A stretch of 30,946 nucleotides of DNA from positions 223,573 through 254,518 of the forward strand of contig KB445791.1 of the NCBI GenBank assembly GCA_000320605.2, written 5' to 3'. The notes below the pieces were generated by a model that was not told the DNA's origin, made no database searches, and saw nothing but the letters and a program-made list of their open reading frames with translations. This document shows positions 3,208 to 26,885 of this stretch, one piece after another. The stretch's first letter is position 1. The number at the start of each line of letters is the position of its first letter. Origin of the DNA: Gelatoporia subvermispora B. Lineage: Eukaryota > Basidiomycota > Agaricomycetes > Polyporales > Gelatoporiaceae. Both the position numbers and the translations under genes were made by a program.

Positions 3208-3256
3208 CTACCAGGTATAAGGATGTTATCCATAGAATTTAATTTATTGCACATAC
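3208..3256 (-). other. Intron in Helitron A
   Basis: A 49-nt GTATGT...GTAG intron. Splicing joins ...LHTLSR to IHRDGVMR in frame; without it the frame ends three codons later. Confidence 0.75.
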
Positions 3257-5009: not shown

Positions 5010-5067
5010 CTGCAAATATATCGGTGAGTTCACATTGAAGGCTATATCTCATTGACAGGTCACGTAC
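5010..5067 (-). other. Intron in Helitron A
   Basis: A 58-nt GTACGT...GCAG intron. Splicing joins the frame ending EEAGAD to EPGVVPLVVSGS, which restores the Rep-domain reading frame; neither flanking frame reads through without it. Confidence 0.75.
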
Positions 5068-5755: not shown

Positions 5756-8700
5756 ATGAGGGGTGTATGCCAGACCACATTGAGATGAGTTCTTTTCTAG
5801 TTTTCGAACCTATTGGTCCTCTAGACTTCCGTTTCGCATAGAACCGTAAAGCGGCATGTATTGTCACGCCCCCCAATGTTCCATGCAGTAATCCCAGTGT
5901 ACGCACACAGTCACAGATGCCTCGACTTGCCATGGTAATGAAAGAACTCACGGAGAGCGTTTATTACAGTAGATTTACCCATGCTGCCAGGCCCTCCCAT
6001 ATACATCTGTAGAGCGTGAAGGTGGGCGTCATCGCCATGCAAATGAGGTTGCACCGCCTGTTCGGCAATTATCCTAAATGCCCTTGCCTATTTACAGTTC
6101 AAAGTCCACTTCAAGATGAAGTGAGTAATCACGCTATCCCATTGCACATTATCAGCACCGCCCGCCGAATGAGCAGGGCTATCCAGATACATGACTGTGG
6201 CATGCAATAGTTGTTCTACCGACCATATCAAGCCATCAGGCATGATCACGCAAGTACTAGGAGCAGTTACAGATTGTGCTTGTGTTTGTGCAGTAAGAGA
6301 CATGCGTTGACGTGCAGCGGTCTTGCGAGAAGTGTACTCATCTCTCCATACATCCTCCAAGCCGTCAGTGGCGTCGACAGATTTCTCGCTTGCATGTTGC
6401 TCAGGCGCCATCCCTGACGGGCCAACACGCGTGAAGATATGATGACGATCTGCGAGATCGATGCATTCTAATGCAGTGGCTGTCAGACGGCTTTGAGCAG
6501 TCGCACGACCAATCTCAACAGATTCAAAGAACTAATTTAAAACCTCTGTCATAGGTTCGTCCCATGCAAGGTCATCAGCCTCCACCATGGCGCCGTCATT
6601 GAGACCACCTGCCGATCTGAATCGTCTATTTTGGTGCCCCTGGCGCAGATGGCGTTGACGACTGTCATTACATTCATGCATAATCTGCATGTTATTCATT
6701 ACCGCATCGAACTTGCAGTCACGGTCAACCGTGTGATGGTCAAATGCATTGGCCCAACTCTCTCCCGCACTTCGTAGGTTGTGTGCATGTCTCCAAGGCT
6801 TAAAAAACATCAACATCAAGCGACAATAACGAGCAGATTGTACGGGAACATCTCTACAGGGCAGGGCAGGGCCAATGGGCACAGGGACCAATCTTTTGGA
6901 TGGATGTAAGACTTTCAGACATTTACATTCCTGCTCCAAATGGCCTGGCATAAATGCAAATCGGGCATGCATCTAAGTTTGCGAAGCGAGTAATCTTTCC
7001 ATGTCAACAGGAACTTTGTTGGCTAAGTTACTTGCCTCAGGCACTACAGGCTCAAGATCATCATCACCCGACTCAGAGCTGGATTCATAGTCTTCTAAAT
7101 CGTTGGACTTGCTTTCCTCATCGGGCTCATATACCCGGATGTTCTCTTTCTTGAATCGAGAGATGAAGTCTCACAAGGTCAAATGTTCGAGTTCTGCAAA
7201 TCGGTAAATATAATTGTAAAGCTGATTTGCCACAGGTCTAATGGTCCCGTGCGAAGGCACGATCCCTATTTCGTCCACAGCATTCATTGCATCTAAATGT
7301 TCTTCTACCTCACTAGCCTCTTCATGAGCTACATGCGCGTCGGCATCCTCATTGTCCACGTTTGCGTCAATGTCCCAGGAGGGATCATTGGCACTTTCTA
7401 GCTGATTATCATTATCGGTCCAGCTCTGTGTAATGTATACACATTTAGAACTAGGGTCTTCATCGTCCATAAAATGTTCAAAACCTCACCAGTAGAGTTC
7501 GTTATATGAATGACTCATAAAATGATCTTTAAACCCAAGTAAATGTGCCATAACCTGTTGACTGCTCAGCTCTTGTTGTGCAACCATAGCAAAGGCAGCA
7601 CGCTGCAATATACGGCGGGCACGGGATGCAATGTCGTTGCATTGTCCATTGAACTGAGCCAGGTGTTTCAAAGCAATCTCAAGAGCAGCGTAGAACACAT
7701 GATTCTTCAGTGGGGTTTTAGTTACATAATCTGTAATGTACATTAACACTGCTTTGGCGTCGTCCCCTGATCTGATGAACTTTATGTCCATATTACAGCG
7801 CGTAGCCTCGAGGATGGTCTCATTAAAGTTGTTGACCATACCATCAATGCATTGCAAACAGATCTGACCAGTATTGGGGTCGATCATGCTCTCGAAGCAC
7901 ACTTTACCTTCATCCAAGTCAAAGCGACACTCGCGTGCATGTTCCTGACCCTTCCAGTACTTGTAGCACATAGCAGTGTGAACGTGTTTCTGACATGCAA
8001 ACACTAACCAGTAAAGATCAGCCGCCCTGTTGGTCAGGTCATCTAACGATGGTTCAAAAGATACCGGGACACTGCGCACCGAGCATGAGTGCGGTTTTGA
8101 TTCACCATCGATACCTTCAGGGTTTGGAGGTGCCGCGGTAGATATAGTGTCATCCAAGAAGTCAATCAGTCAACACCGAAATTCTTTACTACCCGCCGCA
8201 GTCACTCGCTCATGTAACGTGTTAGGATTCAAGCCTCCTTCAACCTAGACAACCATGTGGCAATAGAGTGTGCCACGACCTTGAGCCTCTACACAACTAT
8301 AATAGGCCTTGACGAGCCCCAAAATACCTCCTTCTGTGTCACACTGTTTAGGATCGTATGCCAGAAGACAAGACAAAAAAGCATTCATATAGATATCAAA
8401 AAAATGAGCTCCAACAGAAGGATTTTTTGCAATGAGGGGAGACTGACTCCAGTAGTCCGGCACATTAGCTGGGAGTAAGTTGTCGATATCTATATCCGAC
8501 CCATTTTAGAATTTAACTAACGGATTATATACATCTGCGGGGTTAATGGTGATATAAAAACTGGGCATCCCATGCTGGAGCATCAACCCGTGTATCTCGT
8601 TTCTTATTGTGATTCATGCATCGGAAGAGCCCAGAACCTTTTGAGTGACAAGCTTAACCTCGTGCATCAGTTTAAGTACCCAACGCTCCTCGCCTGAAGT

Positions 8701-11115
8701 TGCGTTAACCTGCCCATCAGCCTGCAAATGTTCACACATCCGCACCACCACTTCTGGAGAGATAGCCGCAAAATCTGAGGTGACAGAAGCGAAAGCCTCT
8801 TTCCGTACATGAAGACTTGAATGGAGAAAAAGGGCATGCCGTTGAAGAATGTTAAAGACTGTGAACATGAAGGAGGGATGCTCCTAAAAACGAACATCCT
8901 TAAGATTGAAGAAGTGCTTGTAATGTCGCCTAAAACTGATAGGGCGCAAGCGGCCCCAGTCCTCCAGACCTCCGACACCATACGGGAACAGAGTAGGGTA
9001 CACACGGGGGAGCAGAAGGGGATCAAAAAACTCATTTACTGGCTCAGGATCATGCGGTACCACCAAGAAGGGTAGCCGCCGTTGCTTGATGTGCCAGATA
9101 GCAGCTGCTCACAGTTCAGCAGCCAGTGCTCGTCCATCCACATCTGTAATGACGACGGAATGCATTGCATCTTCATGTTCGCCGCCATGGGTTGGAACGT
9201 GCATGGTATCTCCTACATCGTAGCACACGGTCAGGGTGTTGTGAGCTACACTGCTCTGTATATGTTTAACATGATAAGGTAGCAGCCCGTTCAGAGGCAG
9301 GGCATTTATGCAAGCCTGATCAATTTCAATGTCCCTGTACAATGGGTTATGCTGTTTCAGCCAGTCTAAAGCGGCACAAACACGCTCCCGGTGCACAGCG
9401 AGCGGTTTTGCTTTTGAAAGCAACCACTCTTTTGACGGAAGAACAGATCCAATGAATACGACAAAGATAGAAGTCATAGCATCCTTGATTGAGGGCGGCA
9501 GAACACGAGCAACATCTCCTGGTTGTTGGGGATGAATAACGACATGACCTTTCAAAGTGCGTTATGCGTTAGGGAGAGCGATGCCACATTTATCCTCCTT
9601 CAGCTGAATGATCCAGCACTTTGCTCGTGAAGACGTGATAAGACTCTTCTCAATTGGGGTCAGCGCCGCGAGCTCGTCTGGAACTGGGCCAGGGTACGTA
9701 TTATTTACCAAAGACAGAGCAGGTAGCTTGTTGTGACCCAACAAAGACAGACAAGGGGTGCAAAGAACCACTTCAATTTGTTCAGAGTTTGGTCCACCCA
9801 CAATGCCATCTGGATGGAGCATTATATGTTTCAATAGTCCCTCAGTGAAGAAGGGAGGAACTGCTTATGAATTATCAGGGGGTTGTCACCTGAGCAATTC
9901 CAATAGAACATCACAGAGAGGTACAGGCTTCAGACGGGATAGCAATGCAGATTCGGCACAGCACGCACATGTGCCACTTCGCAAAGACTTGCTCGAAGTC
10001 TCGCTCCTAAACTTATATATTAACCTGTCCTTGAGTGTGCGCGGAATAACACATGGCCATTCCTCTGCGACCCCGCAACAACAATCCTCCACATCATCTC
10101 TCTGTTGTTGCCTCCAAGCGGCCGCGCGAGCAGGAGCTTTCCCTTTCGCGATGTATGCAATGTGTGACTTAAGTAGTCGGCGCATATGAGCGAGACTATC
10201 ACCCGGCTTAAACTGTATGCCACAGGAGCGCAGCAAACGACACATCAGCCGCAGAGTGATAGAGCAGTGAAGATGTCAGAGAATGTGCAATTCCATATCT
10301 TGTGCATCTGAGAAGCCAGCTTGAGTAGAAGCATACAAGGTGCAATGAGGCCCCCCTGCTTGTGGCATTCCCCTTTGACGAGATGATCAATCAACAAGTT
10401 ACGTAACATGTCGATGGTGTAACACATAGGCAGCACCAAGGAATGAGCTTGCGCGAGTTTAACGAGCTCTGCATGTTTAAGTTCCTCGAGACTGTTCACG
10501 AGGCTAACAATGGATGGAGGAGACACGTGGGTGACAGGCAAAGAAGTAGCGAGCTTCTGCCCTAAGGCTATCCACCGGCTGCTGTGACGAGTATCTATAC
10601 AAACACCGTATTTAACACCTACACGACACATGAGGCCTTCGTCGCCCTCAGTGGTCAAGCAATAATTGGCCATGGCCTCTCGAAAAAAGTGAGCAAACGA
10701 CACGGCATCACTAGCCAGACGCCAGGAGGTGGCACAGGCAGAAGCCCTGATGCCAATGCAGTCACCAGATATAACGTGCTGTACCAGGCGAGTGTGTGCA
10801 GCACTCAGAAGCTCCCCGTTATCATAAACAAGACCGTGAGTAAACATGAGGTAACATACTACATGATGTGCGCGAGTCCGTCCCTCAAACGCATACATAG
10901 ACTCCACAAGAAGCTCGGCCAAGTGTATATACGACTGTGCAACAGAACCCCAGTTTTGACGTGCACTTGAGGAAGACGCCGCAGATGATGCACCCCAGGC
11001 AACGTCCGCTGGATGTGATGCTCGAGAGCCCACGAGGTGATCTAGAATGAGGACGTCAGAACAAGCAACTGCGTATGCCATGCAAACGAAACACACCATT
11101 ACAGGGCGTCCACCA
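5756..11115 (-). pseudogene. Helitron B Rep/helicase, ancient copy with 15 nonsense codons and truncated helicase
   Basis: A second Helitron-type protein relic. From 10245 down to about 5860 one reading frame continues without any indel, broken only by stops at 9886, 9865, 9562, 9109, 8884, 8614, 8506, 8245, 8170, 7486, 7171, 6973, 6532, 6088 and 5911. Visible parts: an N-terminal SAP-like segment (VKLAQAHSLVLP, about 10490-10370); a DUF6570-like block (NNTYPGPVPDELAALTPIE); a Rep block with paired tyrosines (YITDYVTK, near 7735) but with the first HUH histidine changed (LYCHM); an acidic linker; and a helicase start with Walker A (GGPGSMGKST, near 5980). A frameshift in a six-G run near 5873 precedes GGVTIHAALRF. 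The helicase then stops dead near 5756, where Helitron A sequence begins. Frame also changes near 10250, between SAP-like segments. Confidence 0.88.
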
Positions 11116-11712: not shown

Positions 11713-12373
11713 TAGTCTCATGACCAGATGTTCGGAGCTGGAATCGGAGTGTCCCTCATCAAGTGATTCCAAGCTCCTGAATGTCTGGTGGCTTTACCCC
11801 CATGACTCCCGGGTTGGTGACATACGTGATGCCCTCATACTAAATTCAGCAGTCTGAGGAAGCGACGAGAGCCCCAATATCCCATTCCCGAGAACATTGA
11901 TATATAGCGCCCCGGCCATCAGCTTCACACTCACTACAGCCAACAATCTCAGACTGCAAGATGAGTACTCGAGGAATTTGCAGTTCGCAGGACGACTAAG
12001 ATTTCAGTGAGTCCGGTCTCACCTGATTCCTTTCGAGTACATTTGATGGCGAGAAGCGTTCAAATTGTACTTGCAACTCTGAGTGGCCGCATCCTGAGCC
12101 TGCACCAACGCCTTATACAAGTGCTACTGTTCTTTGTAGTGAGTACAGGTTTGACCAAAAGAGGTTTTCATGAGCCAGAAAAGCGCAGAAAATTGAAAGA
12201 GAACAGCGCAGATGACTGCCTGGTGTTCTCGTACTACTGGATTTGGTGTGGGAGCGTCACATATGTCACCAACCCGGGAGTCACGGGGGTAAAGCCACCA
12301 GACGTTTAGGAGCTCGGAATTACCTGATGAGGGACACTCTGATTTCAGCTCCGAACGTCTGGTCACGAGACTA
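11713..12373. mobile_element. 661-bp non-autonomous DNA transposon with ~145-bp inverted ends
   Basis: The first ~145 bases (TAGTCTCATGACCAGATG...) match the reverse complement of the last ~145 (TAGTCTCGTGACCAGACG...), with most mismatches being transitions. A perfect 9-bp duplication, GGTAAGACC, flanks it. Inside each arm is a second foldback (CCAGACGTTCGGAGCT against AGCTCCTAAACGTCTGG in the right arm), followed by GTCTGGTG. It holds no convincing gene, so it must be mobilised in trans. It shares the terminal TAGTCTCG and the foldback-then-GTCTGGTG layout with the RecQ-DUF6589 element next door, which makes it a likely passenger of that family. Confidence 0.88.
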
Positions 12374-12398: not shown

Positions 12399-12458
12399 GG
12401 AATTTTCGATCTCCAACCGGAGAGTGCCGAGCAGCACGTACGGATGGGAACGAGACTA
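12399..12458. repeat. Terminal remnant of an older relative (right end)
   Basis: This block ends in CGAGACTA, the reverse complement of TAGTCTCG. It is about 87% identical to 26726-26785, the right end of the RecQ-DUF6589 element, and in the same orientation. It includes the small foldback around gatcTCCxACCGGAg and the cgccgagcagcac word. It is followed by TCTGATTGG and then at once by the left end of the RecQ-DUF6589 element. I read it as the right end of a related element that was already there; its left end was not found. Confidence 0.7.
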
Positions 12459-12467
12459 TCTGATTGG
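12459..12467. repeat. Target-site duplication, left copy (TCTGATTGG)
   Basis: The 9-mer TCTGATTGG lies directly before the terminal TAGTCTCG at 12468 and is repeated exactly at 26786-26794, after the matching right terminus. Confidence 0.82.
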
Positions 12468-12618
12468 TAGTCTCGCAAGCCAGACATTATAGGAGGGTGG
12501 CTGCGCCACGGAGGCTGCCGAGCGGAGATCTAAAAACCGGTGCGCGCATCCTCCTATATTGTCTGGTGACTTTCGTGCGGGCGGGTGTAGCAAAGTCGTC
12601 ATGTGACCACGACGCGCC
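12468..12618. repeat. Left terminal region of the RecQ-DUF6589 element
   Basis: TAGTCTCG, a 4-base spacer, then a foldback: CCAGACATTATAGGAGG at 12480-12496 pairs with CCTCCTATATTGTCTGG at 12550-12566. The inner part after GTCTGGTGA is inverted at the right end. The first ~85 bases match, in inverted orientation, the remnant at 26795-26885. Confidence 0.8.
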
Positions 12619-12800
12619 GCGTTGCCGCAGCGCGATGCACAGATCGACGTGTATCTCTCGAGCTCACATGTTCCTCGCTCGCGGCTTGTGCACGCTTCGT
12701 CGAGTATTTTTATATATTTTGTTTGCATCCTGTACCTTCTGTACTGTCGGAAACATCATCTTCAACTACCACAAACTCGTCAAGAACAACCGAATTCTCA
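12619..12800 (+). promoter_or_regulatory. Upstream region of the RecQ-like gene
   Basis: The space between the element's inverted end and the chosen ATG. It contains a TATA-like run (tatttttatatatttt, 12703-12718) about 85 bp before the start. A comparable AT run (aaaaatatatta, 26552-26563) precedes the DUF6589 start at the opposite end, so both genes may be driven from the element's own subterminal promoters. Inference only. Confidence 0.35.
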
Positions 12801-15528
12801 ATGACCACCCCGAAGCTCGAGGGTGCCTCGCGGGAGACTGCTGCACATGAATGCCCATGTACTTCTTCAGCGGCTCAAGACGATGCTAATACGGACGTCG
12901 TAATTGAGGACCTGGATACCGAGGCGACGCCCCCAGAAAAAAACGGCACCTACAGTGTTCTCTGTGCCACTCGTAGATCCGCGACCAAGACTCGGGGCTA
13001 CTCTTCTGCGGACACTCGCGAGCGCATCACGCAGGCGTTCAGACATGCTTACGACGACAAAGAGCTGTATTCCTGGCAGCTTGATGTCTCTGAAGCCCTT
13101 TTACTTGGTCTGGACTGTCTGGTTGTGGCTGGCACTGGTGCTGGCAAGACATATCCGTTTGTGATGCCCCTCCTGGTGGATGACACAAAGTGCAAGAAGG
13201 TTATTATATTATCGCCCCTTAATGATCTGAAAGTGGATCAGGTAAGTCTGGTTTACATCATAAACATGATCTGTCTTGACGCTTCCAACTAGGCCGCGAG
13301 ATTTCGCAAAATGGGACTCACAGCTACGGCCATCAATGGTGAAGTCTACAATGATAGACTGCACAAGGTGAGCATATACTTTGGATTCCCTGAGAATTCC
13401 TGACGTACTTGTGAAGTCCATCATGGACGGCGCTTTCCAGGTCCTTCTTCCATCTCCAGAGATGTGTCTGAAGCACCCGCAATTCTCAAAGCTTATGCGC
13501 ACTCCAGACTTCATGAAGGATGTCTGTGCCGTCGTTATTGACGAAGCACACTGCATCTCTCAATGGGGCGAAACATTTCGCAAGGATTATTGCCAGCTCG
13601 CAAAACTTCGGTCATTTGTTCCAACCACAGTCCCCTTTCTGGCGACCTCGGCAACACTTCCACCAGCTGTTCTCTCCGATGTTTGGCAGCAGCTTTCTTT
13701 TAATTCTTCTCGGATGTTTCACGTGAATCTAGGCAACGACCACACCAATATTACCCCTCTTGTCTGTCGTATGTCGGGCGCTGCCAATGACCTTGATGCG
13801 CTCAACTTTACCATCGACGAAGCTGCTGCCGGCTTACCGCTTGAGCGCACTATCATCTTTGTAAACTCCCGACTGCTTGCCTACAAGGCATGTCAACATC
13901 TTCGAGAACGTCTTCCACCACATCTACAGCATCAAATCGACTTTCTGCACTCTCTTCAAAGTCCGCGAGCAAAGCACATGGTGATGAAGAAATTTCGCAA
14001 GGGCAAAATTAAGATTCTATGTGCTACCGAGGCCGCTGGCATGGTGAGAGAACTATTCTCTCTCGTAAATAGACTGCATATACTCACTCATTTGCTTATA
14101 TAAAGGGACTAGACATTGGTGACATAGCGAGGGTTGTTCAATTTATGATCCCGCAGTCGCTATCTGTCTGGTTCCAGCGCTATGGTCGTGGTGGGCGCTC
14201 GGGTCTTCTAACGGTTGCCATTTTGCTCGTTGAAGCATCTGTCTTTCAAATTATCAAAGCAGCCGTCAAGCGTGATCCAGATAAGGAGACGGTTGAACCG
14301 TATGAGCTCAGCGCACAAGTTCCGAATGCTACAAGTGCCGAAGACGACACAGATGATCACGAAGATGATCAAGATGAGAATTGTGTTGGAGCGGAGCTAG
14401 ATGATGAAGATGTGGCAGATCATGCTCAGCCGAAGCTCAAGTATTGCAAGAAGGTTGAAGAAGGCCTCCGTGTTTGGATTGAGACGACTGGTTGCCGGCG
14501 GGATGTTGCAAACAAGTATTTTAACAATCCGTCCTCACAGAGTATAATCCTTCACAGCTACGCAATGTGTTGTAAACTAACATTATATGTCCTTAGTCCC
14601 TTCAGTTCCTTGCTGCGATAATTGCATCACACGCATTGCGGCCTCACCAGGCTATGTTCCAACGGCCGTTGAGGTGTACATTCTTGCACTTCTCAAATCT
14701 GTTCAAACACGGGTTCCTCGCACATTTGCCACAGCAGATGATGTTCCGATGTCAGAGAACTCATGTGCTCAGCAAGCAACTAACGAGGGGCCAGCACACA
14801 AGAAGACTAAGCGCTCGGGTGGACAGCGACGGGCAGATCATCTCGCGAGGTGTCGTGATGCTCTCTCGCAGTGGGCAGACGAGACCTGGAATGAGCACTA
14901 TGATGCATGTATATGGGGGCCAGATGTTCTTCTCCCAGACAAAGTTCTCACCAAGCTTGCCTCACTTATGCGCATTCAAACACTCGAGGATCTCAAAAAT
15001 GAGATTCCTGAGTGGGAGTTTGCGTATAAATGGGGTGCAGATGCACTGGCACTTCTGGAGCGCATTGATCAGGAGTGGAGAGCTGAGAAAGAGCGCCAAC
15101 TTGCAGAGAAGAAGGCACTCAAGAAGGAGGAGTCTGCCCGCAAGAGTGCGCTGCGTGCTGAGAAGCGCCGTGAGGCACTCTATCAGGCCCGGCAACGGAA
15201 GAAGGCCCAGATGGCAGCTCCTTTGTCGAACCATCATGTTCTACAGACTGTACCACCAGCCCCAGTCAATGTCCCGCAAGGTGTATTGTCTCCTGCTGCA
15301 GTGCAGCTGTTCTTGCACACATTTCACGTTCAGCAATATCAAGATTCATTGCACTATCTGTCATATCCAGCCATGTCCTACTATCAGACTCCATCTAATT
15401 TACCCCAATCACACACATATACCCACCAGTTGGGTGTCTCGTATATGCCACTTGTGTCTACCTCGTATACTTATTACCCTCAGCCTTATGCAAGCTCAAG
15501 CACATCGACAAATGCGCCAATTTCGTGA
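12801..15528 (+). CDS. RecQ-like DEAH-box DNA helicase (5 exons)
   Basis: Predicted ATP-dependent 3'-5' DNA helicase. Exons 12801-13241, 13293-13367, 13417-14043, 14106-14541 and 14597-15528 give an intact 836-residue frame; all four introns are 49-62 nt with GT-AG borders. Motifs: Q-motif-like YSWQLDVSEALLLG (about 90-103), Walker A GTGAGKT (111-117), IDEAH (213-217), SAT (250-252), motif V ATEAAGMGLDIGD spanning intron 3, motif VI QRYGRGGRSG (405-414), then a possible RecQ zinc-binding remnant CCDNC (532-536). The C-terminus has a strongly basic coiled-coil-like stretch (about 683-731) and a Tyr/Gln/Pro-rich tail, not typical of cellular RecQ proteins. The ATG at 12801 is the first in this frame; a GTG-started extension to 12603 is unlikely. 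It ends 26 bp from the convergent DUF6589 stop. No disabling change seen, unlike every other element gene here. Confidence 0.9.
13242..13292 (+). other. RecQ-like gene intron 1
   Basis: 51 nt, GTAAGT...AACTAG. Joins KVDQ to AARFRKMG in frame, inside the helicase core. Confidence 0.85.
13368..13416 (+). other. RecQ-like gene intron 2
   Basis: 49 nt, GTGAGC...GTGAAG. Joins RLHK to SIMDGAFQVLLPSPEM in frame. A later CAG at 13438-13440 is an alternative acceptor but would delete conserved residues. Confidence 0.75.
14044..14105 (+). other. RecQ-like gene intron 3
   Basis: 62 nt, GTGAGA...ATAAAG. Restores helicase motif V (EAAGM|GLDIGD). Confidence 0.85.
14542..14596 (+). other. RecQ-like gene intron 4
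   Basis: 55 nt, GTATAA...CCTTAG, with a branch-like CTAAC. Joins NNPSSQ to PSVPCCDNC through a split codon. Confidence 0.8.
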
Positions 15529-15554
15529 GGACAACCACCCCCTGACCCTCAGAC
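15529..15554. other. 26-bp gap between convergent stop codons
   Basis: The RecQ-like TGA (15526-15528) and the DUF6589 TGA (15555-15557 on the minus strand) face each other with only 26 bp between. The 3' UTRs of the two transcripts must overlap, so antisense pairing between them is possible. Confidence 0.7.
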
Positions 15555-15934
15555 TCAGTGACAGCTCTCATCATTCTCGTCTTCAGACTCTGAGCCCCAA
15601 ATCTCCTCAGTTCCAAGCTTGTAATCACGGTTCTTCCACCAATGTTCCAGTGCCTTTCCTAGTTTACCTCCCGCAATACTGCTTGACATGACATCTGTAG
15701 ACCGATCACGTGTGTTGAGTTGTCGTCCACCAACAAATTCATGTAATTTCGATGCATGATATGACTCTTGCAGTTTTTTGACGTCGGACTCCTTACCTGG
15801 TGATGTATGCGACTTTCCACGTCGGAAATGGTTGATTTCAGCTTCCACATGGTCAAGAACTTTGCACTGAGTGGGAATCGAGGCAGATGTCTTGCGAATG
15901 TAGTCCCATGACGCATATGGGCCACACGATGCGA

Positions 15935-15939
15935 AGGTA
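15935..15939. repeat. Copia target-site duplication, left copy (AGGTA)
   Basis: AGGTA directly precedes the LTR start TGTTGAACG and is repeated at 24148-24152 after the other LTR. The duplicated site lies in the last DUF6589 exon. Confidence 0.9.
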
Positions 15940-16260
15940 TGTTGAACGCTAGGGTGCGGACGCGAAGCGTCCCGTCAGTCCGAGCGTATAGCGTCGAGGA
16001 CTAAGTTATCTACCTAGGGTGCGGATGCGAAGCGTCCTACAATATCGTAAGTAATCAGAATGTACGGTAGGTAGATTATATGCTTACCCGTCAGTCCGAG
16101 CGTATAGCGTCGAGGACTGAGGGAAAGCGTGGCTATGTGGCGTTGAATATGGACGCGCGTATGATTAAGTAAGCATGGTGGAACCTATAGTACGAATATG
16201 GAAGTGCTATCCTAATGGCCTAATCTACGAGTGAACGGGTTACCATTAACTGCTCTAACA
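15940..16260 (-). repeat. Copia 3' LTR
   Basis: 321 bp, bounded by TGTT and AACA. Within it two words occur twice: tagggtgcgga(c/t)gcgaagcgtcc, and cccgtcagtccgagcgtata with its continuation (15971-16002 and 16087-16118). ATCTACCTA near 16008 is inverted as TAGGTAGAT near 16068. Confidence 0.95.
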
Positions 16261-16270
16261 CACCCCCTTA
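16261..16270 (-). other. Copia polypurine tract
   Basis: On the minus strand TAAGGGGGTG abuts the 3' LTR, as expected for the plus-strand priming site. Confidence 0.75.
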
Positions 16271-19200
16271 AGCCGGAACAAGTGCCAAAGAGTCGCGGAG
16301 GCGCTCGAAATCCTCGCGTTCGAGTGGTTTCGTCAAGATATCGGCAACCAATTGGTGCGAGGGTTGGTGTTCGACAACGAAGGTGCCATCCGAGACACGT
16401 TTGCGCACGAAGTGGTGATGCATGCCGATGTGCTTCGTGCATGCGTGATGACGGGCATCCTTCGTTAGGTCGATTGAGCCTTGGTTATCACCGCGGATTG
16501 TGGTTGGCGCTCTCTCGTGCGGGCAGCCCATTTCCGTAAGTAGGCGGCGCATCCACAGACCTTGTTTCGCAGCGAACGAGAGGGCCATGTATTCGCCCTC
16601 GGTAGACAAGGCAGCAACAGTGGTCTGCTTCTTGCTGCTCCACGCGACGGTCGCCTTGCCGATCTTGAAGACATATCCGGATACGGAGCGCCGGTCGTCA
16701 ATATTGCGTGCCCAGTCCGAGTTGGAGTAGCCAGCGAGTGTGTCGAACGTGTGAGTGTCCGCGTTGTCACCGCCGAGTATGAGTCGATAGTCACGCGTTC
16801 CTGCGAGGTATTGCAGGATGCGTTTGGCTGCGCGCCAGTGCTTTGGGCCTGGGTCCGCGTTGAATTGCGCGAGGTTGTTGACTGTGAATGATATGTCGGG
16901 TCGTGAGATGACCGAGATCCATGTGAGGGCTCCGAGAAGTTCACGATAAGGGCGCCGTTTCATGTTGTCTGCCTCCTGAGCATTCTTCGGGCCATCGTCC
17001 TTTGTGAGGACATAGCTCGGCTGCATTGGGATTACCTCGGGAGTGCAGTCCTCCATTTTGAATCTCCGTAGAATAGAAATTATGTACTTCTCGTGTGATA
17101 TAGATATTGTACCTTGCTTTCGGTCGTCGAAGAGCTCAAAGCCCATAATCCAGTTTGGGTCTTCTTCCTTCATCTCGAAGAGGCTGTGCAGATTGTGACG
17201 GGCAGCAGCGAGTTCCTTGCGCGAGCTCGAGAACATGAGAGCATTGTCGACATGGATGCCCATGATGGTAGTACCAAGCTCGGTGTCACGGATATACACC
17301 GCGTTGTCCGTGAATAGCTGTCGGAAGCCGACCGATTTGAGTTGTGCAGTCATGTGACGATTCCAGAGTCGTGCTGCTTGCTTGAGTCCGTAGAGGCTGC
17401 GTAGTAGTCATACAACGCGATCGGTGCCGTCCGTAAAGCCAACGGGCTGTCGCATGTAGATCTCGTGATCCAGTTCGCTGTGAAGGAAGGCGCCAGTGAC
17501 GTCGTCTTGTGCGCGGTACCAGCCGCATGCAGCTGCAAGGTGGAGGATTGCGCGCAGCACATCAAGTCGAACTGTGGGTGAGAATGTGTCGTTGTAATCA
17601 ACACCGGGAATTTGCGAGAATCCCTGAGCAACGAGCCGTGCCTTGAATCGCAGGATCTCGCCGTCCGGGCCTCGCTTGATTGCGTAGGTCCATCTATTAC
17701 CTACCGCTTTCCGACCAGGTGGTAGGACTGTAAGCACCCACGTTTTGCGGCGCTCGAGCATACCAATCTCTTCGCGCATCGCAGTCCACCACTCGTCTGC
17801 ATACCGTAATCGGATGGCCTCATGGAAGCTTGCAGGAGTGTCGGGACCTTCTGCTGCCATATACACGAGTGCTGTGACTTCACCTTCCTTCGTGGTGGTG
17901 ACAGGTTCCAAGTCGGGTTGTGACTCGGCTTTCTTCGCAGCCTTGCACTGGGCTTTGGCTTGTTGGTCTCGGGCTTTCAGAATATCCGTAGCTTGCTTCT
18001 TCCATGTCGGTCGTGAGATGCGTTCGGAGCGACGTGGAGGAGGAGGAGTGGGAGATGGCACCTGTTCGGGTTCGGTTCGGGATAAAGTAGGAGATGGAAT
18101 AGGGGAAATGGATGGTTCCGGAGGTTTGGATAGGATCTCAGGTACATCAGGTGTCTTCACAGGTTCATCACGGGTCATGTGAGGCCCTCGTGAGTCGCTC
18201 AAAGTGGAATTATGTGACACCCCCTCGCTTGGAGCGACATCGAAAAAATTGTCCTCTGAGGGTAGCTTCTCATAGACTATAATGTCTCGAGAGTTCATGA
18301 ATTTACGCCGAGATGGAATCCAAACCTTATATGACTTGGAACCGGGCTTAAAGCCCATAAAGATCCCGTCAAGGGAGTGAGGATCAAGCTTGCCACGGCC
18401 TTGATTGGGAACACGGATATGGCATTTAGAACCAAAAATCCGTAGGGTGGAAACATCGGGCTTGGAGCCGTAGAAGGCCTCATTCGGAGTGCATTTCGAC
18501 AGCGCGTGAGTAGAACAGCGGTTGCGGATAAATGATGCGTACTCGTGTGCCTCGGGCCAGAAGCAGTTGCGAAGTCCGGCATCATGTAGCATCGCAAGGG
18601 CATGTTCATGCGTTGTTTGGTTGAAACGTTCGGCAACACCATTTTGCTGAGGTGTATGAGGTGCCGACATTTCTTGTGAGATGCCGCGCTCGTCGAAGAA
18701 CTTCTTGAGATCCTTCCCGATAAACTCGCCTCCACCGTCACTTCGAATATACTTCACCTTGTTGCTGGTGAGAGACTCAATGCGGTTAACGAGTGTGATA
18801 ATCTCGTCCGTGGCGTCGCTCTTGTTCTTGAGGTATGCCTTCCAGCCCTTGCGCGAGTGATCATCAACCATGGCGAGGGTATAGCGTAGACCGGTGACAG
18901 AGGAGTCGAACGGGCCTTGCAGATCGATATGAAGTCGCTCGCCAGGTTTCTTAGCGCGTTGTGTGGCTTGTGCGGGGAATGGAGCCTTGTGATGCTTTCC
19001 CTTAGCACAGCCATCGCACGGGCCGGAGTCACCTACAAGGTGAGAACTGAGTCCGGTAACTATATGGTTCTTCGCCATGTGGCGGAGGGTTCGCTCGCTA
19101 ATGTGACCGAGACGTCGGTGCCATAGATCGACATGATCTAATACTTGAAGAGAGGACGGTGTTTTTGGCTTATGTAATAGTGACTAAGCAGCTACTTTCC

Positions 19201-19370
19201 CGCGCGCGGAGCGCAGCGGGCGCCTGTATCCCGGGCTGCGCGGCTACACATCACGTGACCATGCAAGCGGTCAAATGTTGTGCTCGACTGCTGCGAGCCT
19301 GACCTTCGGCCTCTTTTGTTGGCTTCTCAGGCTGTCTCGGGCTCTGCTTCTGTTGGATCTTGGAGTCTCT

Positions 19371-19410
19371 GGGTCTCTCTGGGTCTCTCTGGGTCTCTCT
19401 GGGTTTCTCA
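19371..19410. repeat. 10-bp tandem repeat (gggtctctct)
   Basis: Three exact copies of gggtctctct and one variant (gggtttctca), with a degenerate copy before them. It is a small satellite within the insert. Confidence 0.85.
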
Positions 19411-19464
19411 GGGGGGCTGTAAGGGTAAGAGCACTGCCAGCACTGCCAGTTTGGGATTTGGTAG

Positions 19465-19828
19465 CCTGTGGGTAGTACACACCATAGGTACGGGTTGAGA
19501 ACTGCTAACCCGTGGTACCCACCAGAGACCTGTGGTCCACCAGGCACTGAATGTAGTACGATCAACTAGGACATTCTGGCAGCTATTGGTGGTACAAAGA
19601 ATAATTAGAGTCTATGTAATGCAGAAGGACATATGTAAACTATAGTAATGTTTGTTTAGATGTCCGTAAAGCCACCACAACCCATTGATACCAGTGAGAC
19701 CCACATACGACCCACCCGATGCGTGTCATACCCGTACCTGTATGATGGGTTACAAACCCGCGTGGGTATGGGTATGGGTAGAGAGCGAGACACCCGCAGG
19801 TGCAGCCATGGTGTGCACTACCTGTGGG
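19465..19828. mobile_element. hAT-like MITE, 348 bp, with perfect 8-bp duplication
   Basis: The element spans 19473-19820. Its ends TAGTACACACCAT and (reverse complement of the right end) TAGTGCACACCAT are inverted. CCTGTGGG occurs exactly at 19465-19472 and 19821-19828. The interior has GGGTACGGGT/ACCCGTACC-like words and no gene. An 8-bp duplication is typical of the hAT superfamily. Confidence 0.85.
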
Positions 19829-20570
19829 CAACAAGGCAAGCTTTTGTGATAAGTCCTATCTCTCTCTACGGGTGTCCGTTAGTTGTATAAACAGTCTTTT
19901 TGGGCTGGGAACCGCTATCCAAATTACAAGGTACTGGGAGATTGAGCTGGCAAGTTTACAGTTGCATTTCTGTCCAGCATAGCTAGATTGACTCTCCATT
20001 TTAACAGTTCCCGTTCATCTGATTTCCTCTATCCATACATTCTCTGGGCTGGCCGGTATTGCCTTTGCACTGCAGAGCATGTGGGGTAAAATGGCTGCCT
20101 TAATGCAGGTAAGGCTGCTACTGCGTGTGCAAAGTATACAGGCAGATGTTGAAAGATATGATCATTAAACTCAACAGAGACTGAGTATGCTGTTACTTAT
20201 ATAAATATTGCAAAATACATACACATTGTGTGGGGCAGGGAGATCCTCATAGGAGAGTCCAGGAAAAGAAAAGGGGAAACCAATTAGTCTATTTCTTTCA
20301 ACTTCAGTCACATCGGCTCTGTCTTCATAGAAATGAATAGATTATTATATACAATTATTCAAGAACATGTATATTGCAAAAATCAATGTAATGCCAGGGA
20401 GCAATGTTTAGGCACAACATGCCATGCCTTTTGCTCTGGCGCCTCTTCTACCAGCTACACCTGTTCCCACTCAACTACCTTTGGCTCCTATGCCTGCTCC
20501 CGCACCCACACCTGCACCTGTAGTGTTATCACTGTCTAAGCTGACTGGCAAGATGGCTGCCCACTCATAA
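19829..20570. other. Non-coding part of the Helitron-derived insert
   Basis: AT-rich, without a recognisable coding frame or repeat boundary. It probably represents decayed upstream helicase sequence or unrelated captured DNA. Confidence 0.3.
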
Positions 20571-20726
20571 TTTTATATAACCTGGATCATGCCAATGGGG
20601 TTTGCAATGGCACCCATGCTATTCTTACCTGAGCTTCTGACCGAGTATTAGAGGTGTGATTAATCGGAGGCAACCATACAGGCAAGTTGGTCCTTACTCC
20701 ACATATGACCTGCACTGCCTGAGAAG

Positions 20727-21070
20727 TAGTGCTTTTCATAGGTAAGGGTGACCTGCACGGCGGGTTGGGTACCTTTACCCGTGAGAGTACCAGTATGGGT
20801 TGTTGTTCCAATACCTGTAAACCCGGCGAGTCACCCAAAATACCCCAAAAAGCGCTCTAGGAATGCATTTGAGCATGCAGGAGCCATACCAGGGCTCCTG
20901 CATGCTCTTCGTGCCATTTTTTCCACTCCAGCAGTGTTCTGGAGGACACTTGCCCACCCCCGGACCAGCGCTTCGTGGGCCCATACCCATGCTCATGGGT
21001 CTGTACCCTCTGCACGTACGGGTATGGGTCATAGTGCTGGCACCTGGGAGTAGCATTGTAAAAAGCACTA
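20727..21070. mobile_element. hAT-like MITE, 344 bp, inside the Helitron helicase relic
   Basis: Ends TAGTGCTTTTCATAGG and (right end reversed) TAGTGCTTTTTACAATG. The flanking 8-mers CTGAGAAG and CCAGAAAG agree at four of eight positions, all differences being transitions, so the duplication is only a weak candidate. Helicase motifs resume on both sides. Contains a 15-bp perfect hairpin at 20871-20907. Confidence 0.7.
20871..20907. repeat. Perfect 15-bp stem hairpin
   Basis: GAGCATGCAGGAGCC, a 7-base loop, then GGCTCCTGCATGCTC, without mismatch. It lies near the middle of the MITE. Confidence 0.9.
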
Positions 21071-21348
21071 CCAGAAAGAAGATACTAGGTGGCCATTTGA
21101 GCTCAAGCATCACCAATTTCCAGTCCGCCTGGCATTCACAATGACAATCAACAAGGCACAAGGACAATCACTCAATCAAGTCGGTTTAGATCTATGTGTG
21201 CCAGTATTCTCACATGATCAACTTGACATTACTATGTCCCATGTGACATCTGCTACAAGAATGAAGGTGTTGTTTCCTTCAGACTGGAAGTTTACAACGA
21301 CAAAAAGTATTGTATACTTTGAGATTCTTTTACAGTAAGGATCTCTGT

Positions 21349-21365
21349 CAATTATTTGATAATTG
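21349..21365. repeat. AT-rich hairpin after the helicase stop
   Basis: CAATTAT-TTG-ATAATTG, a perfect 7-bp stem 11 bp after the stop codon. It could be a transcript end or a subterminal Helitron hairpin, but it is too far from a CTRR end to be sure. Confidence 0.4.
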
Positions 21366-22710
21366 TAAGGATAGGCTATTATAGTAAATGAGACACACTA
21401 GACTGTATCATACATAAATTTAATTGAACTTAAGGTACAATAATGATATTTATAACTGCGAGCCCGTGGTGTCCACGGGCGCCGTTGCTCGTCGAGGTCG
21501 GAAGAACGGGCAGTGAAAGCAAGGTGGGGTGGACAGGACAGTGAGCACGGAGCCGTCGCGCAGTCAAGCTCGTAAAGGCTATTACGAAGCCTGCTTTCGA
21601 TGGCAACTTCTCCAGACGAGTTGATGACCTTCACGCGGCCCTTGGACTTGGTGATTATAAGACCTCGCTTGTCCATATGGCTCTCCGAGATGAGATTGTC
21701 GCGCGCGTTCGGGCAGTACGAGACATCACGTAGAGTAATGACCCGGTCTTGACGGCTTGTGACGTAGCAGACGAGGTTGATGTCGCCACGTCCGAGAACC
21801 TCAAGTTGAGGTCCGCCGTCAAGAATGCCACCGATCGAGCTGCGAGATGGAGTGAATGTCGTGAAGGCCGTGCGGTCGTTACAGATATGTGTCGTAGCGC
21901 CACTGTCGAGGATCCAGGCATAGCGGGATGCCGAGCGCAGAGCGGCCATGTAGGATGAGTGCTCCGAGTCCGTCGTGTCGGCTTTGGTAGACTTCGACTC
22001 AACGGCCTCGTTCGCGCGATTCTTCGGCTTCGAGAACTTGCTCTTCTCGTCCTTCTTGTCCTGGTCCTTGTTGTCTTTACTGTCCTTATCGTCCTTCTTC
22101 TTCTTCGTACGACATCCGTCTCGGGAGCCCTGCTCATGGGAACCACCCCCTTTTCGGGTGCAGTTCTGTGCCCAGTGACCCTTCTCGCTGCAGTTCGAGC
22201 AGAATGACTCGCTCGTGCGTGGCGTGCTCAAAAATGACTTGCCCTTGTTAACGTGCTTGGCTTGGTAAGCTGCCATAGCTGCCGACTGCTGGTTGGCCCG
22301 AACACCGTGTTTGTCAAGGATACGGCGCAAAACCTCCTCAGAGGTGTAGCGATCGGGGAGTCCCGAGAACACGTAGTTCCAGGACGGGGGCATTGAGATC
22401 CGCAAGAAGCACGCGAACAGCTCGTCGGGTATATCGCGCTGCACAAGCACGAGATCGCGGCGGAATCCCTTCATCTTCGAGAGATGGGTCATGACGTCAT
22501 CGCCATCGATATATTTCGTCGAGACGATGTTGGTGATTGTGAGCGTCCAGTCGGTCGCTGTCTGCCCGCAGTATAAGCGCTGTGCCTCGCGCCAGATCTC
22601 GACGGCCGTATCCAGGTGGCCGACCTGGTTTATAACCTCTTCGGTCATGTTGGCGGTCAAGATCGCGCGTACAAGTGCATTAGCACGGCGCCATCCCGGG
22701 TATGTCTCAT

Positions 22711-23229
22711 CAAGCGCGTAGTGCTTTGCAGGGGTACGGGTAACCCTCGGGGTTGGAGGGTAGGGTCGGCCAAGGGTAAGGGTAAGGGTATCCATTATTG
22801 TACCCTTCACCCTTGGGTACCCATACGGTAAATAATTGAATTAGAATGTTTACAACAAGCTGACAGGCACACTGTTAGCCTTGTGGCTGGCTCGTTGTCC
22901 GTGCCCTTCTGTGTCTCGGTCACAGTGGTATCGACATGGGCTTCTCACTGAGGACAAACACATTCTTGAGGTCACACGGGATGCAGATGAGGACGCGGAT
23001 CATATTTAGTGTTGTGATTGAGCATTTAGTACGAGCTTGTACTGTACAGTGAATGAGAGCAGAGGCCCACTCGGAGTGACAACCCATATATGGACCCCTC
23101 ACCCTCGTGTACCCGCGCCACCCTTGGAATACCCATACCCGTCTGACGGGTCCGTACCCGTGGCGGGTAAGGGTAGGGGTAATGCCCCGGACACCCGGGG
23201 GTTCACCCCTGCAAAGCACTACAAGCGCG
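22711..23229. mobile_element. hAT-like MITE, 503 bp, inserted in Copia gag
   Basis: The element spans 22719-23221, with inverted ends TAGTGCTTTGCAGGGGT. CAAGCGCG is duplicated exactly at 22711-22718 and 23222-23229. Removing the element and one duplicate joins gag cleanly (GELDRPHAL then DETYPGWRR). The interior is rich in GGGTA/TACCC words near both ends and has no gene. Confidence 0.92.
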
Positions 23230-23814
23230 TGGGGCCGGTCGAGTTCGCCAGTGCAGTACTCGAAGAGATCGACAGTTTCGAGCGTCGATTTCATCTGGAT
23301 CATCCATGGCACGTAATTCATGCTAGCGAGCTTGTGAGGGAGCCGATACAACGAATGGTATTTCATTGCATCGATTGACTGGCTGTTGTATGTCCAATGA
23401 GCTGCGTCGGCGTAGTCGTCATACTGGCCGTAATCAGCGCGGCCTGCGTGTGAGCCAAAGCCTCCCATGCGGTACGCTGTATTAGCATAGTGCATTCTCG
23501 GTGAGAACATTGCCGGTCGGAGAGATGGTCCCGCACGGCCTGGAGACGGAGGCGGAGCCAGTTGGCTATCAACGCCTGCGACACCTTCGGCGTTTGGGTT
23601 CTGCGATCCGTAGGCATCTGGCGAGGGCTGGTCGACATCATAGTCGGGCTGCTGAGTGACATTGGTATCGTGCGGGAGCGGGTTGTTGCCGTCAGGTGGC
23701 GTGCGAGCGATGGGAGCCATCGTGAGGTCGTTAAGGGCGTGAGCGGGCGAGCGTTGGCGATCGTAACGGGAGCAAGCGACAGGTCCGAGATCGCGTTATG
23801 TGTTGCGCCTCTCG

Positions 23815-23826
23815 GGGCTCATAACC
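23815..23826 (-). other. Copia primer-binding site (internal initiator tRNA-Met sequence)
   Basis: Directly inside the 5' LTR the minus strand reads GGTTATGAGCCC, which is complementary to GGGCUCAUAACC in the anticodon stem-loop of initiator tRNA-Met. Priming from a half-tRNA, as known for Drosophila copia, would explain it; a 3' CCA-end match is absent. Confidence 0.8.
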
Positions 23827-24147
23827 TGTTGAACGCTAGGGTGCGGACGCGAAGCATCCCGTCAGTCCGAGCGTATAGCGTCGAGGACTAAGTTATCTAC
23901 CTAGGGTGCAGACGCGAAGCGTCCTACAATATCGTAAGTAATCAGAATGTACGGTAGGTAGATTATGTGCTTACCCGTCAGTCCGAGCGTATAGCGTCGA
24001 GGACTGAGGGAAAGCGTGGCTATGTGGCGTTGAATATGGACGCGCGTATGATTAAGTAAGCATGGTGGAACCTATAGTACGAATATGGAAGTGCTATCCT
24101 AACGGCCTAATCTACGAGTGAACGGGTTACCATTAACTGCTCTAACA
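23827..24147 (-). repeat. Copia 5' LTR
   Basis: 321 bp, same length as the other LTR. It differs from it at five sites, all C/T or G/A. Confidence 0.95.
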
Positions 24148-24152
24148 AGGTA
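24148..24152. repeat. Copia target-site duplication, right copy (AGGTA)
   Basis: Exact repeat of 15935-15939; falls within the first seven bases of the last DUF6589 exon. Confidence 0.9.
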
Positions 24153-24154
24153 TG

Positions 24155-24206
24155 CTAACAGAACTAGTGAGATTAACTGCACACCCGCTTTAATTATGCG
24201 ATGTAC
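24155..24206 (-). other. DUF6589 intron 3
   Basis: 52 nt, GTACAT...TGTTAG. Joins EHNVLGIK to HTFASCGPYASWDYIRK, the latter being continued at 15934 on the far side of the Copia copy. Confidence 0.7.
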
Positions 24207-24309
24207 CTTAATCCCAAGAACATTATGCTCTTGTAGCATGTCAATAGGAAGAAAGCAGGAAGGTCTTCCGGTGGTATTGGTAAGCCAGCAATGCTTCATC
24301 AAATAGTAC

Positions 24310-24355
24310 CTGCTCATCATGAATAACGAGAAATCATGTACATTGGTGAACGTAC
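24310..24355 (-). other. DUF6589 intron 2
   Basis: 46 nt, GTACGT...GAGCAG. Joins WPPDL(K) to YYLMKHCWLTNTTGRP through a split codon. Confidence 0.75.
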
Positions 24356-24624
24356 TTCAGATCCGGGGGCCATTCTCGGTGGATGCCCTGAAGCAGCTCG
24401 AGAACCTCGATGGTATATTTGGAGTTTCGGCCACCCGAGAAGCGAAAGAGAAGGCGAGGAAGTAGGACCTCCATGCGGCCAACATCACCACCGCAAATGG
24501 CGTCGTTTAGATTCAAATAGTCGAGGATGTCTCGGTTGAATTGGATTCCTTGCTGAAGTAGGTTATCTTGTTTCTCCTTTGGAAGCCTTGCTGATTTCCT
24601 CAGCGCTTTCGTCGAGGCAAAGTT

Positions 24625-24634
24625 GTTCAGTTCA
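24625..24634 (-). repeat. 5-bp tandem duplication disrupting DUF6589
   Basis: On the minus strand GTGAAC is followed by a second TGAAC and then AACTTTGCC. With one copy the frame reads AVYIVNNFASTKAL and continues through the conserved C-terminal half; with two copies it hits TGA at once. Confidence 0.8.
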
Positions 24635-25766
24635 CGATGTAGACTGCTATCTCGTGGAGTTGTGTTGGTGTTTTACTGCGAAGATCTGCGAGAGATGGTA
24701 CTCCAGAAACTGTACACCAGAGATCCCGAAATCGTGCCTCTGCGACGTGCTCTAGCAGTTCTTGAATGGTGTGATGGAATGTTCCCTGGACAGATGGTGT
24801 ATGAACACCTTTTCGATTGAGAAGCTCTGCGGCGTGTATTAGCCCTAGTCCGGCACGAGTTCCGAAGTATTGAGTATGGAGAGAATTTTCTAAGGCCATT
24901 TGCAAGTGCAGCCATCCTGGTTGAGTCTCAAGATGTTCAAGACGATCAAAAGCGTTCAAGTCCTGACACCGAAAGACCTGTAGACCACGAATACGAGAGA
25001 CAGTAAGTTGGTCGCCAACCCAAGGGATGACACAGTCGTGTCCGAGGTGTTGTTGCTTTTCCGGTGTGTCTAGTCCAAGCTGGTGCCAGATATCCTTAAA
25101 GACGCGGTCATTGCCTTCGTAGGATGCTTCGTCGATGTGCATTGTGTCCAGAACATATTGGCAAGTTGCGGATTCTGGACCAGTGGATAGCTGCATGACA
25201 GGAGAGGGTGCATTGAAGACATCACTATCCTTGTGCATATAGTCTTCGAATTGGAAATCCGGTGCGTTCCGGAGAGCATTTAGCATATAGAAGATGGCCC
25301 AGGTCTTCAGATAAGGCGCAGAAACTTGTTCGAGTTCAACAATTTCCTGTAGTGTAATTGAGTTTTGACTGCCTGTGAGACGCTGTTGTCGCCGAGCCTC
25401 AGGGTCAGGGACAAGAGTCTCGGAGTCTTTGATGATAATTATTGTGGCCGCAGTACCACTATCGAAGGTCGTCTGATGATCTAAGCGTTGCTCAAAGACA
25501 AGCTTCTTGATGTTCAGATTGTCGTAGGTGCCAAGATACAGAAATGAGTGTGTGTCGGAGATCATAGCTTGCTTCGACCTAATGGAGAGAGCTTGAATGC
25601 CATCATAGGCCCATTTCTGACTCATTGTGATGCCGAGTGCATGCAGGGTATCAAACGCTTTGGTGGCGATCCCGCAACTCTTGAAATATACAGTAAGCAG
25701 CTTCTGAACTCTGGCACATGCTTGAGATCTCGAGAAGCTGGCCATTGACATCATCATGAGGACGGT

Positions 25767-25830
25767 CTATTGATGGCACACGTGTGAGATAAGCGACACA
25801 ATTGTGAGCCCGGGTAAGGAAAGTGTTCAC
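25767..25830 (-). other. DUF6589 intron 1
   Basis: 64 nt, GTGAAC...AATAG. Joins KSPDA to TVLMMMSMASFSRSQ and removes an apparent frame change between the two long open frames. Confidence 0.75.
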
Positions 25831-26645
25831 CGCATCCGGGCTCTTATATGTATTGTGTCGCTTTTGCTTGTCTGTATGCGCAGCACGAGAGATAATAGAC
25901 CAGAACAGCGGTGCAGTGTTGCACATAGTAGTGATCAAAGGCTTCCAGTGGACTGCCAGCAGAGCCTCTTCGGATAGCTGGCTCTGAGGTGAGAGCATCT
26001 CTGGGCGCAGTTTTTTCATCTCTTTGTTAACTTTGTGCAAGACGACCTCAATGGCCCAGCTATCCAGCGTTGCACGAGCCGCCTTGGAGCGTATACCCTT
26101 GCCATGTGTTCGAGGTGGTCTGTACCAGTTATGGAGAATGTGCGAGAGCTCCTTGCTGCGCATAAGTGACGTGCGAGCGTACTGAGCTTTACAATTCGAG
26201 ACAAGTTCAGGGACATTCCAGCTAAGGGCCCAGAGAAAGAGAGCCAAGTCAAGACCTTGTGAATCTAAGCACTGCAGGACTGCGAGAACACGGGCAGCTA
26301 TGTCTCCCAAGATATTGAGAGCTGCACGAAGTCTATCGGTGCGGTCTTGATAATGGGTTTTGCTTCTAGTGCGTGTATGCTGAGGGTGCTTCCATCCTGA
26401 TTCAAAGCTGTCTGGACTATTGACAAAGTCCAGGTCATTGTCGTCTAGCAGCTCCGGGTCCCCATTCTCGCTGTCACTGTCTGACCAGACGGCTTCATCC
26501 GGATCATCAGACTCATAGTCGGGGTCGCATACGTGGCTCATGACAAGGACGAAAAATATATTACTGCGCGACGCGACATACAAGATGCCCGCTAGCGAGA
26601 AGAGTGGGGCGCATACGATCGACAGGACGCGCGGCGCGACGCGTG

Positions 26646-26785
26646 GGCGCGTTGACGTCACATGACGACTTCGCTACACCCGCCTGCACGAAACTCACCA
26701 GACGTTTGTGCTCGCTCGGTGCAGGAGATTTTCGATCTCCGACCGGAGGGCGCCGAGCAGCACAAACGGATGGGGACGAGACTAT
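26646..26785. repeat. Right terminal region of the RecQ-DUF6589 element
   Basis: Read inward: TAGTCTCGTCCCCATC, a foldback in which CGTTTGTGCTGCTCGG pairs with CCGAGCGAGCACAAACG, an inner mini-hairpin GGAGATcgaaaATCTCC, then GTCTGGTGAG and about 55 bp shared with the left end. Confidence 0.78.
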
Positions 26786-26794
26786 CTGATTGGG
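26786..26794. repeat. Target-site duplication, right copy (TCTGATTGG)
   Basis: Exact match to 12459-12467. Similarity to the left flank ends at the ninth base. Confidence 0.82.
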
Positions 26795-26885
26795 CGATTA
26801 GGAGGGTTGCGAGCACTGGTTTTTAGATCTCCGCTCGGCAGCCTCCGTGGCGCAGCCATCCTATAACGTCTGGCTTGCGAGACTA
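26795..26885. repeat. Terminal remnant of a third relative
   Basis: Read on the minus strand it begins TAGTCTCGCAAGCCAGAC and follows the left end of the RecQ-DUF6589 element for about 85 bases (ggctgcgccacggaggctgc, agatctaaaaacc). It is therefore the end of another family member into which the nested elements inserted. Confidence 0.75.

What the first reader, a model, noticed from the sequence alone, without database searches (positions are those of the whole stretch)
12468..26785. A bounded mobile element carrying a RecQ-like helicase and a DUF6589 protein
Seen directly: inward-facing TAGTCTCG at both ends, an exact 9-bp duplication TCTGATTGG outside both, inverted subterminal sequence, and two convergent genes filling almost all of the ~6.1 kb left after removing Copia. 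RecQ-like helicases are known to be multiplied in mushroom genomes, and DUF6589 proteins have no assigned function. A tight two-gene unit with its own ends and target duplication would explain both expansions. I do not recall it being described as a transposon family, and I could not check.
Basis: partly seen in the sequence, partly recalled or inferred. Interest (0 to 1): 0.93.

Follow-up and report, generated by a model that had tools for sequence, protein, structure and literature searches.

The report
Helicase-bearing DNA transposon of a mushroom
The window holds one dead copy of a real jumping-gene family that carries its own DNA helicase and a likely cut-and-join enzyme filed until now as a protein of unknown function; the kind of transposon is already known, but the finding gives that unknown protein a likely job.

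Summary
The element spans window 12468-26784 (6.1 kb plus an 8.2-kb Copia), ends in TAGTCTCG on both sides and has a 9-bp duplication outside. In held sequence of the same genome I found 13 end pairs of this and two related families, the window's included: 11 have an exact 9-bp duplication of differing sequence, 2 have none. Four of nine sites tested have paralogous empty sites. A RecQ-like match accompanies DUF6589 at 12 of 13 DUF6589 loci. DUF6589 is predicted to share the fold of Hermes and P-element transposases. Its hint of novelty is not: helicase-bearing Academ transposons (AcademH; fungi and animals; 9- or 10-bp duplications) are in print. I could not compare the transposase with an Academ reference. 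The window copy is dead: Copia splits the DUF6589 gene, which also has a frameshift. Worth keeping: DUF6589 as the probable transposase, and a subfamily with divergent instead of convergent genes.

The parts
12468..26784 (.). RecQ + DUF6589 DNA transposon, 14317 bp with Copia inside (6104 bp without it and its duplicated 5 bp)
   Evidence: ends shared with other copies that sit in unrelated flanks
12459..12467 (.). left copy of 9-bp target duplication TCTGATTGG
26785..26793 (.). right copy of 9-bp target duplication TCTGATTGG
12468..12475 (+). terminal 8 bp TAGTCTCG, helicase-side end (end A)
26777..26784 (-). terminal 8 bp TAGTCTCG, DUF6589-side end (end B)
12561..12634 (+). subterminal inverted repeat, left arm
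   Evidence: 84% to 26628-26703 inverted
26628..26703 (-). subterminal inverted repeat, right arm
12603..15528 (+). RecQ-like SF2 helicase gene, in several open reading frames (DEAD and Helicase_C domains); outer limits are those of the reading frames, intactness not judged
   Evidence: a relative's closest solved structures are WRN and RecQ
15597..26475 (-). DUF6589 (PF20231) gene, proposed DDE-type transposase, split by Copia and frameshifted near 24630
   Evidence: fold
15940..24147 (-). Copia LTR retrotransposon inserted into the 3' part of the DUF6589 gene; LTRs 15940-16260 and 23827-24147
15935..15939 (.). 5-bp Copia target duplication AGGTA (second copy 24148-24152)
12402..12458 (.). 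fragment of another end B abutting the left duplication
26799..26885 (-). fragment of another end A just right of the element
11713..12373 (.). 661-bp non-autonomous relative with ends TAGTCTC(A/G)TGACCAGA and 9-bp duplication GGTAAGACC

Best explanation
The element is a DNA transposon of the AcademH kind, one of several subfamilies in the Gelatoporia subvermispora B genome. The DUF6589 protein is its DDE-type transposase: it recognises the TAGTCTCG ends and the subterminal repeats, cuts the element free (or copies it) and joins it to target DNA with cuts 9 bp apart, and gap filling leaves the 9-bp duplication. The RecQ-like helicase is an accessory motor that probably opens the ends or the strand-transfer intermediate. 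Short derivatives with the same ends are moved by the same machinery. The window copy inserted, and afterwards its DUF6589 gene took a frameshift and a Copia insertion (their order is not known); it cannot now make an intact transposase. Shown: ends, 9-bp duplications, empty sites, gene pairing; predicted: a transposase-like fold. Inferred: catalysis by DUF6589, the helicase's role, cut-and-paste versus copying, and kinship with Academ.
Confidence: 0.84

Rival explanations
1. A new superfamily of helicase-bearing DDE transposons that only resembles AcademH in cargo and duplication length.
For: No sequence link to Academ could be tested; the DUF6589 profile has only chance-level matches among solved-structure sequences and Pfam calls it a family of unknown function; no paper in the held library mentions DUF6589.
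Against: RecQ-type helicase, 9-bp duplication and basidiomycete host are the traits reported for AcademH; absence of the C/DxxH signature fits the printed list, which leaves Academ out of the five superfamilies that have it.
Confidence: 0.1
2. KolobokH: fungal Kolobok transposon with a RecQ helicase.
For: KolobokH encodes RecQ and is known only from fungi (PMC9587614, passages).
Against: Kolobok duplicates TTAA (recalled); here duplications are 9 bp of varied sequence. No C/DxxH column is kept between D494 and E698 (best 7 of 85), whereas Kolobok is listed as having it.
Confidence: 0.02
3. A MuDR/MULE-type transposon that captured a RecQ gene.
Against: No MULE Pfam match in the window reading frames of the DUF6589 gene or in three DUF6589 relatives; C/DxxH signature lacking; the helicase accompanies DUF6589 in four diverged subfamilies, so it is not a recent capture.
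Confidence: 0.03
4. Ordinary host RecQ and DUF6589 genes that lie in repeat-rich DNA, with chance terminal repeats.
For: The window site alone has a 66-bp repeat that could mimic a target duplication.
Against: Ends, duplications and empty sites at other loci; the two strongest general RecQ matches, C5:2310651 and C2:2292724, presumably host genes, have no DUF6589 match near them.
Confidence: 0.01

Closest known systems
AcademH lineage of the Academ superfamily (Kojima 2020, Mob DNA 11:15; paper itself not held, known here through later papers)
   Same: DNA transposon with helicase; 9- or 10-bp target duplication; fungi including Basidiomycota; DEAD/Helicase_C domains
   Different: Nothing found that differs; transposase kinship, terminal sequence and gene order of published AcademH could not be compared
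Academ with RecQ helicase (Kapitonov et al., cited in PMC3627910)
   Same: RecQ helicase carried by a DNA transposon
   Different: Source report not seen; no detail to compare
KolobokH
   Same: fungal DNA transposon with RecQ helicase
   [quoted passage not shown] here 9 bp, a separate gene on the other strand, no C/DxxH
hAT (Hermes) and P-element transposases
   Different: 6-12% identity, no C/DxxH; no helicase and 8-bp duplications in those groups (recalled)
Subtelomeric RecQ helicases of Agaricus bisporus var. burnettii (PMC7473861)
   Same: RecQ-like core without other domains, multiplied (passages); A. bisporus RecQ-like proteins are among the listed relatives of a subfamily C helicase
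   Different: Reported at chromosome ends, no DUF6589 partner mentioned in the passages seen; whether they belong to such elements is untested

Membership tests
AcademH | element encodes a helicase besides the transposase | tested here: met
   RecQ-like gene inside the ends and beside 12 of 13 DUF6589 loci
AcademH | 9- or 10-bp target duplication | tested here: met
   9 bp exactly in 11 of 13 end pairs; 2 without
AcademH | host in animals or fungi, Basidiomycota included | tested here: met
AcademH | Academ-type DDD/E transposase | not testable with these tools
   no Academ reference sequence held; the fold agrees with a DDE transposase but does not name the superfamily
AcademX | nuclease (XPG type, recalled) instead of helicase, and 3-4-bp duplication | tested here: not met
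   9 bp; helicase, and no nuclease domain, in the element's proteins and relatives scanned
KolobokH | TTAA target duplication (recalled) | tested here: not met
Kolobok, MuDR, hAT, P, Dada | C/DxxH signature between second D and last E | tested here: not met
   best column 7 of 85; the conserved H529 is preceded at -3 by G in 83 of 85; assumes E698 bounds the search; list of groups
DDE transposase (general) | RNase H-like transposase fold | tested here: met
   predicted only; Foldseek alone not significant
DDE transposase (general) | three catalytic acids | tested here: inconclusive
   D317 and D494 kept; third acid unresolved among E698, D672, E455
Helitron | Rep/PIF1 helicase protein, no target duplication (recalled) | tested here: not met
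   duplications present; the helicase matched no PIF1 model

The most novel reading that the evidence does not exclude
DUF6589, a large fungal family without assigned function, is a transposase family of its own that has travelled with a RecQ helicase long enough to form at least four subfamilies, in two gene orders, and with a putative catalytic residue that changed (E to H) in subfamilies of which one moved recently; most RecQ-like and DUF6589 'genes' counted in mushroom genomes would then be transposon genes, and the group may deserve a superfamily apart from Academ.
Probability: 0.15. Interest if true: 0.6.

Novelty: new member of a known kind. Interest (0 to 1): 0.36.

Why it matters
It gives a domain of unknown function (DUF6589/PF20231) a likely role as transposase, suggests that RecQ counts in mushroom genomes may be inflated by transposon genes, and supplies well-defined ends, empty sites and short derivatives with which a helicase-assisted transposition reaction could be tested. 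As a kind of element it is not new.

Tried and rejected
Looking for the original AcademH paper by DOI and PMC id failed; it is known here only through reference lists and later papers. One library search for DUF6589 found 0 papers. Other literature searches gave the papers cited or nothing more of use; one search was too broad. A DUF6589 scan of viral contigs matched 13 stretches, none of them a relative. The DUF6589 profile against solved-structure sequences gave 3 chance-level matches. Foldseek alone was not significant (best E 0.083, though its first five rows are Hermes and P element); the second look by VIA-align gave the separation. A first screen for paired ends with 8-10-bp duplications recovered the C1 and C7 copies and found none for C13, C10, C25 and C23 and only an 8-bp, apparently chance pair for C6; for C25 and C6 an end lay outside the held sequence and both were solved after fetching more, the rest stay open. 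My third protein search used a reading frame only partly in the gene's frame, so its 3 hits say little; it was meant to compare contigs that hold both genes. Among the contig lengths printed (120 of 141 listed; 120 of 221 listed), compared by eye, one short one, 6026, occurs in both (P0076, P0155): weak evidence for pairing elsewhere. The first coordinate assembly wrongly reversed some loci and was replaced. Neither the DUF6589 family search nor a search with P0001 itself showed an identical place for P0001, although its contig length equals that of C8; unexplained.

Full report
Where it lies. The window is G000:C1:223573-254518 of a 37.7-Mb genome in 52 contigs. Proteins named Gelatoporia subvermispora B sit on contigs of exactly the lengths of C8, C23, C13 and C10, so the host is taken to be that white-rot fungus (lifestyle recalled).

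Observation. Copia occupies 15940-24147, bounded by AGGTA. The 9-bp repeat of this copy is embedded in a 66-bp direct repeat because the left flank is a right-end fragment of the same family, so the window alone would leave doubt.

Other copies. A search with the first 433 bases gave 31 matches (a lower bound, as the tool says); 20 of the 31 start exactly at the element's first base. In the held sequence I looked for ends by fixed motifs: 17 helicase-side (A) ends, 15 DUF6589-side (B) ends, 5 of subfamily B and 3 of a short related family, and 13 inward-facing pairs among them: ten of the window family, one of the short family (window 11713-12373) and two of subfamily B; the remaining ends are unpaired in what I hold, and ends with a changed motif were not counted. 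Of the 13 pairs, 11 have an exact duplication of 9 bp and none of these extends to 10; C18:557845-558003 (159 bp) and C20:54225-54497 (273 bp) have none. Long copies of the window family are the window copy, C1:3569876-3576241 (6366 bp) and C7:1574903-1580912 (6010 bp); five short derivatives of 164-1162 bp also carry the duplication. A genome-wide search for one short end pattern gave 9 matches against 0 for the reversed control pattern. Subfamily B copies C6:593738-600133 and C25:347803-354203 are 97.5% identical over 6402 columns, end in CAGGCTCTT(G/A)AACCA, and have different 9-bp duplications; a third copy on C13 begins at the same base in an unrelated flank. One end of subfamily D, TAGGCTCGTCCCCAGCC, is shared by three loci with unrelated flanks; its other end was not found. 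Subfamily letters are mine, from DNA similarity.

Empty sites. The joined flanks of nine of ten sites (the window's was left out) were searched in the same genome. Four have paralogues that run through the junction: C6:593738 (C5:70741, 96%), C8:1181363 (C8:1230623, C8:1249505, C26:31896, 88-95%), C8:1132125 (C8:1111908, C8:669260, 89-90%) and C7:1574903 (C7:1570596, 85%, partial). All seven paralogues that I aligned have a single stretch corresponding to the 9 bp, some with a few differences, and no gap at the junction. Two of these four sites hold long RecQ + DUF6589 elements. The other five sites gave no match across the junction in that listing.

Gene pairing. The DUF6589 family search gave 22 matches that group into 13 loci (grouping by hand). 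A RecQ-like match lies beside 12 of the 13: within 7 kb at 11, and 10.1 kb away in the window, where Copia lies between; C1:1022652 is the exception. Of the 16 loci into which the 17 RecQ-like matches group, four have no DUF6589 match near: C3:834032, a fragment on C12, and two on C2; a second query added another helicase fragment at C1:216532. The strongest general RecQ matches, C5:2310651 and C2:2292724, have no DUF6589 near them and are presumably host genes. In subfamilies A-C the two genes converge. In the three subfamily D loci (C1:2.90 Mb, C6:0.63 Mb, C11:0.74 Mb) the strands given make them diverge.

Proteins. The helicase has DEAD and Helicase_C domains; a relative's closest solved structures are WRN and bacterial RecQ. 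The DUF6589 gene runs from about 26475 to 15597 on the minus strand by comparison with a Phanerochaete carnosa protein. It is split by Copia, and near 24630 the match changes frame with no room for an intron, while the C7 copy is open there. The window copy therefore cannot make an intact protein.

What it is. A DNA transposon with a probable DDE-type transposase and a RecQ-type helicase that duplicates 9 bp. In print, AcademH makes 9- or 10-bp duplications and AcademX 3 or 4, the difference being linked to helicase versus nuclease (PMC10045372, passages); AcademH is in Basidiomycota with DEAD/Helicase_C (PMC10799480, passages); and a 'RecQ Helicase in Academ' was reported earlier (PMC3627910, passage). 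Authors of the Marasmius oreades genome noticed widespread putative non-autonomous Academ elements, citing the AcademH paper (PMC8290104, passages). The traits that could be tested fit; the transposase itself could not be compared.

How it likely works. DUF6589 would bind the ends, cut, and join them to target DNA with a 9-bp stagger; the helicase would help open DNA. Insertion with target duplication is shown; excision, helicase role and catalysis are inferred.

Verdict. The kind is known; the assignment of DUF6589, the subfamily with divergent genes and the E-to-H change are the additions worth keeping. The statement that DUF6589 is not discussed in print rests on one search of the open library.

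Noticed in passing
window 597-9555: Broken Helitron pieces on the minus strand: PIF1-like helicase, Helitron_like_N and two DUF6570 matches.
   Followed up: partly
window 11713-12373: 661-bp non-autonomous element with about 144-bp inverted ends (87.5%) and a 9-bp duplication GGTAAGACC, just left of the main element.
   Followed up: yes
window 12402-12458 and 26799-26885: Fragments of both kinds of end directly beside the element: the site is a nest of related insertions.
   Followed up: partly
G000:C1:2.90 Mb, C6:0.63 Mb, C11:0.74 Mb: Subfamily D has the two genes divergent, whereas subfamilies A-C have them convergent.
   Followed up: partly
DUF6589 genes at G000:C25:347803-354203, C6:593738-600133, C10:0.48 Mb, C23:0.55 Mb: The position of the conserved E698 is H in these subfamily B and C copies, although B moved recently.
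   Followed up: partly
protein P0001 (contig of 1749049 bases, as C8): A Gelatoporia DUF6589 protein that was not found as an identical match in the held genome; the best match was 85%.
   Followed up: partly
G000:C12:214502-214986: Short derivative that has kept two 124-bp pieces matching the helicase gene of the C7 copy at 97.6-100%, next to end A.
   Followed up: no
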